NCBI GenBank assembly: GCA_020200315.1 | Contig: JAIVIZ010000096.1 | Coordinates: 1 to 33,471 of the forward strand | DNA length: 33,471 nt | From: Sphingomonadales bacterium | GTDB lineage: Bacteria; Pseudomonadota; Alphaproteobacteria; Sphingomonadales; Sphingomonadaceae | Direction: 5' to 3' | Shown: piece by piece, positions 29,992-33,471 of the stretch | Numbering within the stretch: the first letter of the stretch is position 1 | How the letters are laid out: every line of letters begins with the position of its first letter | The notes under the pieces: model-generated | The model's database searches: none | What the model saw: the letters and a program-made list of their open reading frames with translations, nothing else | What the model was told of the DNA's origin: nothing | Program-made: the position numbers and the translations under genes

Positions 29992-30337
29992 CCCCACACG
30001 AACCGGTGCTGGATCGCGCCCGCCGGGTTGTCGACCTCGGCGGCGGCGTTGGCGCCGTCGAACACGAACCTTGTCGAGACGGTCGTGTCGTATTCGACCA
30101 GGCGATCGAGCGCGTCGTAGTAGAGATTGGCGCCGTTGCTGGCGGACTTGAGCATGTTCTCGGCGGTGTAGGCGAACGTCAGGCCGAGCTGGGGATCGGA
30201 GCTCTGGTTGCCGTTGCCGTCGGACACGACATTCTGACCGCCAAGGCTGATCAGCCGGTTGCGCGCGTCATAAGCATAGCCCGTGCTGCCCGACGCATGC
30301 CCGGTCCAGGCGAAGCTGTCGTTGCTGCGTAGTTCGG
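29992..30337 (-). pseudogene. RHS remnant A
   Basis: Minus-strand reading: RSNDSFAWTGHASGSTGYAYDARNRLISLGGQNVVSDGNGNQ, then the rest of a RHS/YD repeat region up to AGAIQHRFVWG. It closely matches the main RHS gene at about 31834-32165 (RSNDAYAWTGHSSGTTAATFDARN and so on). No start, no C-terminus: it begins at a repeat boundary (AGTTCGGAATCAGTGCACTG, plus strand) and ends 13 bases past the response-regulator stop. A piece of a former RHS gene or tip, not a functional protein. Confidence 0.82.
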
Positions 30338-30340
30338 AAT

Positions 30341-30376
30341 CAGTGCACTGTCACCGTAATCCCGTCACCGTAATCC
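30341..30376 (-). repeat. GTGCACTG-TCACCGTAAT repeat cluster 1
   Basis: Contains CAGTGCACTGTCACCGTAAT, then a second GTCACCGTAATCCC 14 bases later. The same words recur at 30651-30740. Read on the minus strand the word is GGATTACGGTGAC. REP-like in character. Confidence 0.7.
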
Positions 30377-30392
30377 CAGGCCACCCTCCCGT

Positions 30393-30527
30393 TCAGTGAC
30401 CAACGACTAAGTACGACGCGATCAACAACGAAACCACTACGATGCCAATGACCCGATGTCGTCGAAAGAACCCTGGATTTTCCTTCGAAATAATCGAGCC
30501 TACTGCACCTGAAAGCCAGTCCAACAT
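30393..30527 (-). CDS. Small single-helix membrane protein (orphan immunity candidate)
   Basis: A 44-residue protein: amphipathic MLDWLSGAVGSIISKENPGFF, a positive stretch RRHR, then a transmembrane helix VIGIVVVSLLIASYLVV and GH. It is between two RHS remnants and follows the break of remnant B within about 20 bases. In RHS and CDI loci, small orphan immunity genes commonly sit next to displaced tip fragments; that is the basis for the suggestion, and no immunity family is recognised. The region is AT-richer than its neighbours. The SD is weak (AGGA 10 bases or more upstream). An in-frame upstream extension to 30629 reads antisense-like sequence from the RHS remnant and is rejected. Confidence 0.5.
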   Translation of the reverse strand: MLDWLSGAVGSIISKENPGFFRRHRVIGIVVVSLLIASYLVVGH

Positions 30528-30542
30528 CTCACTCAATCCTAC

Positions 30543-30645
30543 TCTGACCGCCAAGGGTGACCAGCCGGTTGCGGGCGTCCTAGACATAGGCCGTGCTGCT
30601 CGACGCATGCCCGGCCCAGGCGAACGCATCTTTGCTGCGTAGTCC
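30543..30645 (-). pseudogene. RHS remnant B
   Basis: Minus-strand reading: RSKDAFAWAGHASSSTAYV, then an in-frame TAG, then DARNRLVTLGGQ, after which homology to RHS stops. It corresponds to the same stretch as the start of remnant A and of the main gene near 32065-32165. With a nonsense codon and both ends missing it is not functional. It starts at the same GTGCACTG repeat boundary as remnant A. Confidence 0.8.
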
Positions 30646-30650
30646 GGAAT

Positions 30651-30740
30651 CAGTGCACTGTCACCGCGATCGTCCGTAATCGCCTGTCACCGTAATCCAC
30701 CCGTCACCGTAATCCACCAAATCCGTAATCTCACTGTAAT
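30651..30740 (-). repeat. GTGCACTG-TCACCGTAAT repeat cluster 2
   Basis: Begins CAGTGCACTGTCACCG (30651-30666) and then has four more CCGTAATC- or CTGTAATC-type words, two of them as GTCACCGTAATCCACC (about 30685 and 30703). It fills the gap between RHS remnant B and the 54-residue membrane-protein gene. No gene is seen here. Confidence 0.7.
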
Positions 30741-30784: not shown

Positions 30785-30949
30785 TCACCGATCATGTTCG
30801 CGCGCTTCACCCAACTTCCTGATGTAGTAGCCGATGAAGTAAGCGCTCGTTATGCAAATGTGGATCTCAAACTCGACGAAGTAGAATATGACAAGTAAGG
30901 CTGCAAAGCCACACAACATAATCACGTCTATCCGCTGCTCTTTAAGCAT
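30785..30949 (-). CDS. Small two-helix membrane protein, candidate immunity partner of the RHS tip
   Basis: A 54-residue protein: MLKEQRID, then a first helix (VIMLCGFAALLVIFYFVEF), a short turn with EIHICI, a second helix (TSAYFIGYYI) and a charged end RKLGEAREHDR. The ATG lies 12 bases after the RHS stop, and the SD AAGGAAC overlaps that stop, so it is translated right after the RHS protein. RHS and related polymorphic toxins are usually followed directly by their immunity gene; a membrane-located immunity would fit a tip that acts on or through the inner membrane. No family is recognised and no activity is shown. Base use is clearly less GC-rich than the RHS core. Confidence 0.68.
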   Translation of the reverse strand: MLKEQRIDVIMLCGFAALLVIFYFVEFEIHICITSAYFIGYYIRKLGEAREHDR

Positions 30950-30961
30950 ATAGTCTGTTCC

Positions 30962-33471
30962 TTAAAATGGGAGGCAACCGAAGCTCGCAAAGAAGCCGTT
31001 CACTCCACCTTCCATCGTGAGCAAAGCAGAAAGACCAGCCCTTGCTACTCCAGCGACGCCGAAAGCGCAGGCAGATGCTTTTAGCCCACCGATGACCCCG
31101 TCCCGGAGAGGATCGATCCCTTGTTGAGGACCGGTTGCTCTCGGCAATGGATTCTGCTTCATATAAACTCCGAAGAGCGACAAGTACGCTTGTGTCGCTG
31201 CAGCGCAAGCAGCTGACCTTGGAGCGGCAGCGCACGCTGCGATCATGCGTTTTTTCGCATCTTCAATGTCTTTGGTAGTGACCTTAATCGGCAAAGAGGT
31301 CTGGTTTCTATCTTGCGATCCTCCACCGCCCTCTCCCCTTCCGCTAAGGTCAGGGCGCACACTTCCAGCCGGTTGTGAGTCACCTGGTCGATAACTCCGC
31401 CAACCATCGCCGGTGTCGTGCCAACCGCAGCTCATGGGGCCCCCTGCTACGCCAACACAGGCCCATATCCGCGTTAGCCCACTCGGATCCACCCAGTTCA
31501 CCGGATCGCCGCCGACATAGGCGTAGAGATTCGGTCCACCGCCATAGCGGATCGGGTCAGGCTGGAGGAACCGACCGGAATGCGGTGCAAGCATGCGTTC
31601 CTTGTAATTGTTGAGGCCCACCTCGGGCAACCACATCTGGCCGGTGTACTGGAACCGGCCGGAGTTGCCCGACTGCGGCTTGCCGTATTCGTCGTAGCGG
31701 TCGATCGTGACCATGTTGCCGCTGCTGTCGCTGGTGGCGATGACCGAGCCGCGCTCGTCGGCGTGGATGAACCGCCGGTTGGTGGCGCCGCTGCCGACAT
31801 AGTCGACCAGCAGCTCATCGGGACCATCCCCCCACACATAGCGGTGCTGGATCGCGCCCGCCGGGTTGTCGACCTCGGCGGCGGCGTTCGGGCCGTCGAA
31901 CACGAACCTCGTCGAGACGGTCGTGTCATATTCGACCAGGCGATCGAGCGCGTCGTAGTAGAGATTGGTGCCGTTGCTGGCCGCGCTCAGTCTGCCTTCA
32001 CTGGTGTAGCTGAACGTCAGCCCGAGCTGCGGATCGGAGGTCTGATTGCCGCCGCTGTCGGATACGACATTCTGGCCGCCAAGGCTGGTCAGCACGTTGC
32101 GGGCATCGAATGTAGCGGCGGTGGTTCCGGAGCTATGCCCGGTCCACGCGTACGCGTCGTTGCTTCGCGTGATGCTCGCGATCTGGCTGGCGGGGTTGTA
32201 GGCGAAGCTCGTATTGAGATCGCTGCTTGTGCCGGCCAGATCGTGGTTGAGCGAGGCCAGCCGCGACAGCGGGTCGAACCCGTAGGTCGTGCTGGTGCCG
32301 TTGCCCCGCGTCAGGCTCGTCCGATTGCCAAGGTCGTCGTAGGCGAACGTCGCCAGCACGCCGACGCCCGAGGTCGCGCCCTGCTCGCGCACCTTGGACA
32401 GCTCGCCGGTGACCAGCCGATCGTAATCGACCGTGAACCCGTCCCACCACGTCGTGCGGGTCAGCCGGCCGGCGAGATCGAACTGGCGGGTGAGCGACCC
32501 GAACCCCTCGACCTCCGACACCTGCCGCCCCAGCGCGTCATAGCTAAAATGCATGTCGTAACCCGGCTGCACCAGCGCGGTCAGCCGGCCGAGATTGTCG
32601 TAGGCGTAGCTGGGGTCCGGCTCGCTGCCGGGACGGTCCTTGGAGATCAGGCGACCCAGGGCATCGTAGCTGAGGTTGAAGGTGAACCCGCGCCGGTTCT
32701 TGAACGAGGTGACGTTGCCGGCCGGGTCGTAGCTCAGCTGCTCATTGTCCGAAGGGTTGCTGACCCCTGAGCCTTGCGGCGGATTGGGATATTGGGTCTG
32801 CGACAGCCGATCGAGGCCGTCATAGACATAGCTCGTCTTGTTGCTCTCGCCGTCGGTCAGCGAGGCGAGCTTGCCGTTGGGCGTGTAGCTCAGCATCGCT
32901 TCGTTCGCCTCGGCCGTCGTGCCGATCGCCACCCGCTTCTGGGTCACCTGACCAACATTATCGTAGCTGAGCATGGTGATCCGGTCGGGACCGTTGGCGG
33001 CGTCGGTCTGCAGCGGGGCGCAGCCGGTCGCCTGCGGTCCCCAGCGGGTCGGGTCCATGTAGGCGATGCCGCACTGCACCCGGCCAAGCCCGTCATAGAC
33101 GTAATCGGTCACCGCATAGTCGACGCCCGCCGCCCACAGCACCTGACGGATCACCTGCCCCTTGGCGTTATACTGGCTATACCGGTGATAGGCCTTGACG
33201 AAGCTGGTCCACGCCGCGTCGGATGGGTCGGTCACCGTGCCGACTTCGCTCAGCCACATCTGCCCCGCGCCGTCGTAACTGTAGCGGGTGGCGCGCAGCT
33301 TGAGCGGGCCGGCGCCGTCGGGATCGGGCGCGATCGTGCCGACCAGCTCGCGGTCGGCATCGTAGCGGGCCCGCGTCGTGTCGGCGGCGCCGGCGAGCGG
33401 CCCGTCGAGAGTCAAGAGATTGCCGACATCGTCATAGGTGAAGGCGGTGGTCGCGGTCAGCGCGCCGTCGC
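30962..33471 (-). CDS. RHS/YD-repeat protein with a variable C-terminal tip (5' end outside window)
   Basis: A frame of about 835 codons open to the window edge, so the N-terminus is missing. Many YD repeats are visible (YDGLGRVQCG, YDALGRLISKDRPG, YDNLGRLTALVQPG, YDPAGNVTSF). The RHS core closes with RFLQPDPIRYGGGPNLYAY and DPVNWVDPSGL near 31477-31495, the typical end of the cocoon-like shell. After that comes a tip of about 170 residues: a Gly/Ser/Arg-rich linker (PDLSGRGEGGGGSQDRNQ), a helix KDIEDAKKRMIAACAAAPRSAACAAATQAYLSLFGVYM, and a hydrophobic C-terminus (GLKASACAFGVAGVARAGLSALL) ending FGCLPF, with six Cys in the tip. I recognise no toxin fold. Base use drops in GC from about 31250 to the end. 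The delivery system is not visible. Confidence 0.88.
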   Translation of the reverse strand, partial: DGALTATTAFTYDDVGNLLTLDGPLAGAADTTRARYDADRELVGTIAPDPDGAGPLKLRATRYSYDGAGQMWLSEVGTVTDPSDAAWTSFVKAYHRYSQYNAKGQVIRQVLWAAGVDYAVTDYVYDGLGRVQCGIAYMDPTRWGPQATGCAPLQTDAANGPDRITMLSYDNVGQVTQKRVAIGTTAEANEAMLSYTPNGKLASLTDGESNKTSYVYDGLDRLSQTQYPNPPQGSGVSNPSDNEQLSYDPAGNVTSFKNRRGFTFNLSYDALGRLISKDRPGSEPDPSYAYDNLGRLTALVQPGYDMHFSYDALGRQVSEVEGFGSLTRQFDLAGRLTRTTWWDGFTVDYDRLVTGELSKVREQGATSGVGVLATFAYDDLGNRTSLTRGNGTSTTYGFDPLSRLASLNHDLAGTSSDLNTSFAYNPASQIASITRSNDAYAWTGHSSGTTAATFDARNVLTSLGGQNVVSDSGGNQTSDPQLGLTFSYTSEGRLSAASNGTNLYYDALDRLVEYDTTVSTRFVFDGPNAAAEVDNPAGAIQHRYVWGDGPDELLVDYVGSGATNRRFIHADERGSVIATSDSSGNMVTIDRYDEYGKPQSGNSGRFQYTGQMWLPEVGLNNYKERMLAPHSGRFLQPDPIRYGGGPNLYAYVGGDPVNWVDPSGLTRIWACVGVAGGPMSCGWHDTGDGWRSYRPGDSQPAGSVRPDLSGRGEGGGGSQDRNQTSLPIKVTTKDIEDAKKRMIAACAAAPRSAACAAATQAYLSLFGVYMKQNPLPRATGPQQGIDPLRDGVIGGLKASACAFGVAGVARAGLSALLTMEGGVNGFFASFGCLPF

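What the first reader, a model, noticed from the sequence alone, without database searches (positions are those of the whole stretch)
30785..31476. Unrecognised RHS C-terminal tip followed directly by a 54-residue membrane protein
Seen: after the conserved DPSGL end of the RHS shell there is a tip of about 170 residues with a Gly/Arg linker, six Cys and a hydrophobic C-terminal segment. Thirteen bases after the stop codon starts a two-helix membrane protein too small for ordinary gene calling, and both are AT-richer than the shell. Known: RHS shells carry exchangeable toxin tips with the immunity gene right behind. Inferred: a new toxin-immunity pair acting at the inner membrane.
Basis: partly seen in the sequence, partly recalled or inferred. 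Interest (0 to 1): 0.8.

Follow-up and report, generated by a model that had tools for sequence, protein, structure and literature searches.

The report
Disulfide-rich secreted toxin with tiny immunity protein
An environmental alphaproteobacterium carries a large shell-like toxin whose unique tip, followed by a tiny membrane protein that probably protects the producer, belongs to a group of toxin tips whose cysteines come in pairs, a sign that they are exported and locked by disulfide bonds before attacking a rival's envelope.

Summary
In detail: after DPSGL the RHS gene has a 170-residue tip with six Cys, and 12 bases after its stop a 54-codon membrane-protein ORF starts behind AAGGA. I tested the design instead. 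Of 113 RHS tips read in the same family, 21 have a membrane partner of at most 100 residues next to them. Unexpectedly, 98 of 100 Cys-bearing tips have an even Cys count (77 of 77, one per homology group; 18 of 18 with related shells outside Sphingomonadales); less related RHS tips of the phylum: 15 of 59. Full-length relatives mostly carry Sec signal peptides, their shells hold even, closely spaced Cys, TssB is absent from 39 of 40 genomes, and in seven genomes the RHS gene lies near type II secretion genes. A Cys near the tip's end tends to go with a membrane or exported partner. Best reading: a Sec-exported, disulfide-stapled RHS toxin acting at the rival's inner membrane, with the 54-residue protein as immunity. 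The pair is a new member of a known kind; the paired-Cys, T6SS-independent group is a new variant. Toxicity, immunity and export of this pair are untested.

The parts
31475..33469 (-). RHS/YD-repeat shell, 5' end cut by the contig end; holds one Cys pair 17 residues apart
   Evidence: PF05593 1.7e-28, TIGR01643 1.1e-22 and TIGR03696 6.2e-21; contig C129 is 33471 bases; Cys 133 and 150 of the translation
31475..31696 (-). RHS-associated core domain ending in DPSGL; Asp of DPIRY (31556-31558) and Asp of DPSGL are 23 residues apart, as are D1141 and D1164 of Tse5
   Evidence: TIGR03696 match; spacing; Tse5 residue numbers from passages of PMC9637101
30965..31474 (-). Polymorphic tip, 170 residues: Cys-paired beta hairpin, Gly-rich linker, helical hairpin with C81/C90, hydrophobic C-terminal part bracketed by C136 and C167 (the pairing is inferred)
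   Evidence: no Pfam or NCBIfam family above cut-off
30959..30963 (-). AAGGA ribosome-binding-like site overlapping the tip's TAA stop
   Evidence: sequence
30785..30949 (-). 54-residue membrane protein, putative immunity protein (stop included)
   Evidence: no relatives in the other genomes of a 298-genome family search
30543..30671 (-). degenerate RHS-core fragment B (remnant of a displaced cassette)
   Evidence: 87% identical to 30233-30361; frames
30396..30527 (-). 44-codon ORF with one hydrophobic segment between two RHS remnants; possible orphan immunity remnant
   Evidence: no family
29992..30361 (-). degenerate RHS-core fragment A
   Evidence: 29992-30291 is 84% identical to 31830-32129 of the main gene

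Best explanation
The tip is the exchangeable toxin of a secreted RHS protein and the 54-residue protein is its immunity protein. Steps: (1) seen as signal peptides in most full-length relatives, inferred here because the gene's 5' end is missing: the RHS protein is exported by Sec, without a T6SS. (2) inferred from Cys counts: in the periplasm shell and tip are oxidised and every Cys pairs; here C6-C16 would staple a beta hairpin, C81-C90 a helical hairpin, and C136-C167 would close the hydrophobic C-terminal part. (3) inferred: the folded protein crosses the outer membrane (perhaps by a linked type II system in some relatives; route unknown in this genome), and the shell releases the tip by the DPxGL aspartyl self-cleavage known from other RHS proteins. 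(4) inferred: the tip reaches the rival's periplasm and its hydrophobic part inserts into or disturbs the inner membrane. (5) inferred: the 54-residue inner-membrane protein, made by coupled translation, blocks this in the producer.
For: Position, coupling and chance test of the small ORF. Same layout with unrelated tips and partners: 21 of 113 family tips have a membrane partner of at most 100 residues. Cys parity 98 of 100, and 77 of 77 non-redundant; 18 of 18 with related shells outside Sphingomonadales, 17 of them without BLASTP similarity to the family tips or each other; controls 15 of 59; random placement at most 64% even. Shell Cys even in 16 of 16. A C-terminal Cys goes with membrane or exported partners: 39 of 50 against 12 of 36 homology groups, p 5e-5. 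Tips with membrane partners are more hydrophobic and Gly/Ala/Ser-rich. Signal peptides in relatives. TssB in 1 of 40 RHS genomes and not in this one. T2SS genes near RHS in seven genomes. Precedents: Tse5/Tsi5, CDI ionophores, Bcn-A.
Against: No homologue of tip or partner was found, so this exact pair rests on one MAG contig. The RHS gene's N-terminus is missing, so its signal peptide is not seen. No GspD above cut-off in this genome (87% complete) or in 18 further RHS genomes of the 40, so T2SS is not a general route. The tip's C-terminal stretch is below a strict TM threshold and its model there is poor (pLDDT under 50). The small protein was modelled as one helix. 15 of 41 tips with a soluble partner also have a C-terminal Cys, and a Cys in the last 12 residues is not rare in controls either (26 of 82 against 68 of 113 in the family). 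Small membrane partners also follow unclasped tips (L048, L098, L121; L261, L266). Odd Cys counts: L076 (3), L091 (7), L252 (3). Parity follows the shell type, not the class: control tips of other alphaproteobacterial genomes have 0, 1 or 3 Cys (0 of 5 Cys-bearing tips even). The controls' own excess of odd counts is unexplained.
Confidence: 0.63

Rival explanations
1. The tip is a toxin exported and oxidised in the same way, but acts on a periplasmic or membrane-protein target (cell wall, envelope enzyme) rather than by making pores; the small protein shields that target in the membrane.
For: Many clasped tips in the family have lipoprotein or exported soluble partners, so the clasp would mark envelope action, not pores; the window tip does not pass a TM threshold; confident helical hairpin before the hydrophobic part.
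Against: No enzyme family found; a tiny membrane partner is what pore and ionophore toxins have; tip hydrophobicity is 15th highest of 106.
Confidence: 0.25
2. The tip is a decayed or non-toxic RHS end and the small ORF a fortuitous or unrelated membrane peptide.
For: No homologues found; RHS remnants and decayed ORFs lie just downstream; ORFs of this length alone are not rare by chance.
Against: Six Cys in the layout of relatives; an ORF with such a hydrophobic segment is rare by chance and has a ribosome-binding site coupled to the tip's stop; unique tips are usual in this family, 88 homology groups in 113 tips.
Confidence: 0.08
3. The even Cys counts reflect metal binding (for example zinc) in cytoplasmic toxins rather than disulfides.
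For: A few tips are rich in Cys (8 in L098 and L114 of the family; 7 in controls L220, L232, L237).
Against: Counts of 2 are common (29 of 113); the last two Cys lie a median 107 residues apart in 69 tips with four or more; shell Cys are also even and closely spaced and signal peptides are present.
Confidence: 0.04

Closest known systems
Tse5 (RhsP1)/Tsi5 of Pseudomonas aeruginosa (PMC9637101; passages read)
   Same: RHS protein with a 149-residue C-terminal toxin for which no enzyme activity was predicted, an aspartyl self-cleavage pair 23 residues apart, an immunity protein with two predicted TM regions found in the cytoplasmic membrane
   Different: Tse5 has a PAAR-like N-terminus and is an H1-T6SS effector; the word cysteine does not occur in that paper's text; here TssB is absent, the tip has six Cys, and no sequence similarity was tested or shown
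CDI ionophore toxins CdiA-CT/CdiI (PMC11630599; passages read)
   Same: C-terminal ionophore domain after an entry domain; CdiI are 72-100-residue hydrophobic two-helix hairpins with both ends in the cytoplasm; a predicted disulfide links two helices of an entry domain
   Different: CdiA with VENN motif, not RHS; five-helix bundle not shown here; partner here only 54 residues
Bcn-A of Xanthomonas perforans (PMC7259588; passages read)
   Same: 1,398-residue RHS-family bacteriocin whose activity is lost in an xpsD (T2SS) deletion; immunity gene in the same locus, product predicted in the inner membrane
   Different: needs further ORFs; immunity protein 145 residues; no Cys pattern in the passages seen
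Bacterial teneurin-like proteins (PMC13018210; passages read)
   Same: predicted Sec signal peptides in many, YD shell, polymorphic C-terminal toxins with linked immunity genes, one CTD that inhibits E. coli only with a signal peptide
   Different: teneurin-type superfold with extra domains, many in Myxococcota; 'sphingomon' does not occur in that paper's text
CdzC/CdzD/CdzI of Caulobacter (PMC5380434; passages read)
   Same: alphaproteobacterial contact-dependent membrane-active toxin with a small inner-membrane immunity protein
   Different: short glycine-zipper proteins exported by type I secretion, no RHS shell

Membership tests
RHS polymorphic toxin | YD/RHS repeats plus RHS-associated core ending in DPxGL | tested here: met
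   PF05593, TIGR01643, TIGR03696
RHS polymorphic toxin | variable C-terminal tip after a conserved shell | tested here: met
   nearest same-genus shells 59-60% identical with unrelated tips
RHS polymorphic toxin | tip is toxic and neutralised by the adjacent gene product | not testable with these tools
   needs expression
T6SS RHS effector | T6SS in the genome | tested here: not met
   TssB (TIGR03358) absent from this genome (87% complete) and present in 1 of 40 RHS genomes
T6SS RHS effector | N-terminal PAAR or clade domain | not testable with these tools
   the gene is cut by the contig end; most full-length relatives start with a signal peptide instead
Tse5/Tsi5 type pair | small two-TM immunity protein in the cytoplasmic membrane | tested here: inconclusive
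   54-residue protein, one strong and one weak hydrophobic segment, one helix in a single-sequence model
Tse5/Tsi5 type pair | membrane depolarisation by the tip | not testable with these tools
   assay needed
CDI ionophore toxin | CdiA context and VENN motif | tested here: not met
   no VENN in the 835-residue translation; RHS shell instead
Paired-Cys secreted RHS group (this report) | even Cys count in the tip, Cys within 12 residues of the end in the clasped kind | tested here: met
   six Cys, last at position 4 from the end
Paired-Cys secreted RHS group (this report) | Sec signal peptide | not testable with these tools
   5' end missing; found by rule in 16 of 20 full-length relatives
Paired-Cys secreted RHS group (this report) | T2SS genes near the RHS gene (only in part of the group) | tested here: not met
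   no GspD above cut-off in this genome; RHS upstream side lies beyond the contig end

The most novel reading that the evidence does not exclude
The RHS toxins of this shell type, found in several alphaproteobacterial families, form a T6SS-independent group that is exported by Sec, fully disulfide-bonded in shell and tip, and in some species sent out by a dedicated type II secretion system encoded nearby. A disulfide clasp whose last Cys sits near the tip's very end marks toxins that act in the rival's periplasm or inner membrane, while clasp-free tips mostly act in the cytoplasm, so that cysteine positions would help to predict the compartment of action and the kind of immunity protein. The window pair would be an unseen membrane toxin of this group with one of its smallest immunity proteins.
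Probability: 0.48. Interest if true: 0.75.

Novelty: new variant of a known kind. Interest (0 to 1): 0.62.

Why it matters
RHS toxins of Gram-negative bacteria are known mainly as T6SS cargo (general knowledge). A group in which tips and shells carry almost only paired cysteines, with signal peptides and in some species neighbouring type II genes, would show another delivery logic: fold and oxidise first, then export. It makes two questions directly testable: how a closed RHS shell leaves a cell without a T6SS, and whether cysteine layout helps to predict where an unknown toxin acts. It also points to many small membrane immunity proteins that ordinary gene calling may miss.

Tried and rejected
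Profile searches with tip and partner gave nothing above cut-off: Pfam (tip: only DUF6862, E 0.014, below cut-off, residues 76-97; partner: two below cut-off), NCBIfam, PADLOC, PHROGs; PDB sequences for the tip, best E 0.17, chance. Relatives of the tip: none in viral contigs, plasmids and the GTDB contig scan (the two contig scans find close relatives only), none in the other 70 genomes of the genus; four weak hits among 397 family genomes have internal stops and are rejected. The tip matches no other tip of the survey (best BLASTP E 0.64). No fold search was run, because the tip model is poor. Having any GspD does not go with having RHS: 21 of 40 RHS genomes against 12 of 30 without an RHS match at the thresholds; only physical linkage is used. 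In one search the tip Cys counts are wrong because most stretches end 500 nt after the core; only the shell counts are used. In one search the same cut makes tips look 171 long.

Rows dropped: 121 family loci were read, 3 were open, 5 tips under 100 residues were left out, leaving 113. L017 and L021 were not used because their match stops before the core end. The 80 extra family places were the next ones down the list, which was itself capped. Controls: 89 loci, 2 open, 5 short, 82 used; their export route was not tested. In one search, 28 of 51 loci were read, 2 open, 1 short; the rest had distant shells or matches ending before the core end. L241, L260 and L264 repeat places of the family set. 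In some searches two tips (L042, L128) had no partner ORF. The partner rule (start codon, ribosome-binding motif, length, penalty for Arg-rich ORFs) was written by me after seeing part of the data; it calls the window partner 'SP/Nterm' and misses at least one likely lipoprotein (L035). In one search the window tip was put into the membrane-partner group by hand.

Novelty searches. None listed a paper that by title or abstract start deals with paired cysteines in RHS tips or with Sphingomonad RHS toxins; the library lacks most subscription papers.

Full report
What is there. The window is one contig (C129, 33471 bases) of a 202-contig genome, 87% complete. On the minus strand an RHS gene enters from the contig end and stops at 30962. 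It has YD/RHS repeats and an RHS-associated core that ends in DPSGL. The Asp of DPIRY and that of DPSGL are 23 residues apart, the same distance as the two Asp needed for self-cleavage of Tse5 (D1141, D1164; passages of PMC9637101). After DPSGL come 170 residues with six Cys, then TAA, 12 bases, and a 54-codon ORF whose AAGGA overlaps the stop. ORFs of this length alone are not rare in random sequence of the same make-up (6-10%), but with such a hydrophobic segment they are (0.0002-0.0003). GC is 0.575 in the tip and 0.461 in the small ORF against 0.661 in the shell.

No relatives of the pair itself. Tip: none in viral contigs, plasmids, the GTDB contig scan (close relatives only), the other 70 genomes of the genus; four hits among 397 family genomes carry internal stops and are weak. 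Small protein: only itself in 298 family genomes. No Pfam, NCBIfam, PADLOC or PHROGs match above cut-off, and no PDB match of weight for the tip.

The design in relatives. With the last 156 residues of the shell as query, 11 of 71 genus genomes and 80 of 397 family genomes have an RHS end. I read 121 of these ends; 118 had a complete tip and 113 tips were at least 100 residues long. They fall into 88 homology groups and the window tip stands alone. A partner ORF starting between -50 and +100 nt from the tip's stop was chosen by a rule of mine. By a simple hydropathy rule 70 of 111 partners are membrane, lipoprotein or signal-peptide proteins and 41 are soluble. 21 of 113 tips have a membrane partner of at most 100 residues, down to 43 and 52, and 18 of these 21 tips have a Cys in the last 12 residues. 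Brevundimonas, Parvularcula and Hyphomonadaceae records also show 54-62-residue membrane partners, two of these four behind unclasped tips. Tips with membrane partners of up to 150 residues are more hydrophobic (median best window 1.37 against 0.85), richer in Gly/Ala/Ser and less polar than tips with soluble partners (p 0.005, 7e-5, 2e-4). The window tip (1.52) is 15th highest of 106.

Cysteines. In these 113 tips the Cys count is 0 (13), 2 (29), 3 (1), 4 (54), 6 (13), 7 (1) or 8 (2): 98 of 100 Cys-bearing tips are even (binomial p 8e-27), and 77 of 77 when one tip per homology group is taken. Trp, His, Met and Tyr counts in the same tips show no excess of even numbers, and random placement at the same frequency gives at most 64% even in 2000 trials. 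In RHS tips of 39 genomes of the phylum outside the family, found with the general RHS core model, 15 of 59 Cys-bearing tips are even (82 tips in all). As a repeat, 18 of 18 tips from named records with related shells outside Sphingomonadales (16 alphaproteobacterial, one unclassified bacterium, one Alteromonadaceae) are even; 17 of these show no BLASTP similarity to family tips or to each other. Of named Sphingomonadales 6 of 7 are even, three of them repeats of family places. The rule follows the shell type rather than the class: nine control tips from other alphaproteobacterial genomes have 0, 1 or 3 Cys, none of the five Cys-bearing ones even. In 16 of 16 full-length relatives with a signal peptide found by rule, the shell holds an even number of Cys, mostly in close pairs at recurring spacings (6, 6, 17-18). 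The window shell fragment holds one pair 17 apart. I conclude that shell and tip are oxidised in this group. This is inference from counts; no disulfide was observed, and the excess of odd counts in controls is unexplained.

Clasp and compartment. The first Cys lies within 30 residues of DPxGL in 83 of 100. A Cys within 12 residues of the C-terminus goes with membrane, lipoprotein or signal-peptide partners: 53 of 70 against 15 of 41 (p 1e-4), one per homology group 39 of 50 against 12 of 36 (p 5e-5). It is a tendency with many exceptions, and a C-terminal Cys is also found in 26 of 82 control tips against 68 of 113 in the family. The window tip has it (last Cys fourth from the end).

Export. 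A Sec-type signal peptide was found by rule in 16 of 20 full-length relatives; three of the other four look like signal peptides by eye and the fourth is open at its start. TssB is found in 1 of 40 RHS genomes, not in this one. Type II secretion genes lie near the RHS gene in seven genomes: six GspD genes of 400-444 bits, five of them second copies and one the only copy, lie within 20 kb of an RHS place, and a seventh genome has a broken GspD on an RHS contig; the other 20 GspD above cut-off in RHS genomes lie more than 50 kb from, or on other contigs than, the RHS places listed (compared by eye, lists capped). Pfam names GspE, F, G, D and M in two of these clusters (L292, L293). In L292 and L293 the RHS gene follows the cluster on the same strand; in others the order varies. 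The 20-kb stretches of 13 further RHS genomes show no such cluster, only one gspE-like ORF in L303. GspD above cut-off is present in 21 of 40 RHS genomes and 12 of 30 without RHS, so a T2SS is not typical of RHS carriers, and none was found in this genome. A precedent exists: Bcn-A, an RHS-family bacteriocin of Xanthomonas perforans, loses activity in a T2SS deletion (passages of PMC7259588).

Model of the tip. Single-sequence AlphaFold2 gives mean pLDDT 60: strands 3-8 and 16-21 that could bring C6 and C16 together, a confident helix pair 68-84/89-108 around C81 and C90, and low-confidence helices 123-151 and 158-168 (model numbers are one higher than tip numbers). The small protein is modelled as one helix. 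By charge (KEQR before, RK after) and the EFE between its two hydrophobic stretches a two-helix hairpin with both ends inside is possible, the topology predicted for CdiI; Tsi5 has two predicted TM regions.

Mechanism. Export by Sec, oxidation, release of the tip by DPxGL cleavage (known from other RHS proteins, not tested here), action at the rival's inner membrane from the periplasmic side, and blocking by the 54-residue membrane protein. Only the anatomy and the comparative statistics are shown; each functional step is inferred.

Known or new. As a toxin-immunity pair it is an unseen member of a known kind, closest in working to Tse5/Tsi5 and the CDI ionophores. RHS proteins with signal peptides as such are known (bacterial teneurins; myxobacterial Rhs, passages of PMC10433427; a Sec/T2SS entry that lists RHS repeats in PMC3482391; Bcn-A). 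I found no paper reporting the paired-cysteine rule, the clasp, or RHS genes beside a T2SS cluster (searches; listings, and passages of seven papers). I rate the group as a new variant of a known kind.

Noticed in passing
window 29992-30671 (-): Two degenerate RHS-core fragments (A and B) downstream appear to begin at the same point of the core, each behind a stretch with GATTACGGTGAC repeats; a 44-codon ORF with one hydrophobic segment (30396-30527) lies between them. It looks like remnants of displaced cassettes with a possible orphan immunity gene.
   Followed up: partly
window 30350-30377, 30674-30718; L016:1259, L050:3166, L065:1848, L071:1632: GATTACGGTGAC occurs four times in the window (chance 0.1) and recurs downstream of the tip in RHS loci of four other genomes, in two of them followed by RHS-like frames, judged by eye. 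A related 18-mer with one mismatch allowed is found in 14 of 298 family genomes, reversed control 0. It may mark cassette borders; its place relative to RHS in those genomes was not checked.
   Followed up: partly
L292, L293, L294, L295, L296, L297, L298: Type II secretion genes near RHS genes.
   Followed up: partly
L293:8503-12986, L294:14071-18545, L303:6563-11262, L304:8214-12706, L307:12757-17309, L310:4571-9270: In several relatives the RHS protein is split into two adjacent ORFs of roughly 600-680 and 880-910 codons that overlap or nearly touch, a two-piece shell.
   Followed up: no
L030, L032, L033, L036, L037, L081, L083, L086, L103: Tips with a C-terminal Cys followed by lipoprotein-like or signal-peptide partners, suggesting periplasmic toxins.
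   Followed up: partly
L010, L044, L064: Tips with a C-terminal Cys whose soluble partners of 86-94 residues look alike by eye, counter-examples to the clasp tendency.
   Followed up: no
control tips: RHS tips outside the family have an excess of odd Cys counts (44 of 59), nine with a single Cys in the last seven residues; unexplained.
   Followed up: no
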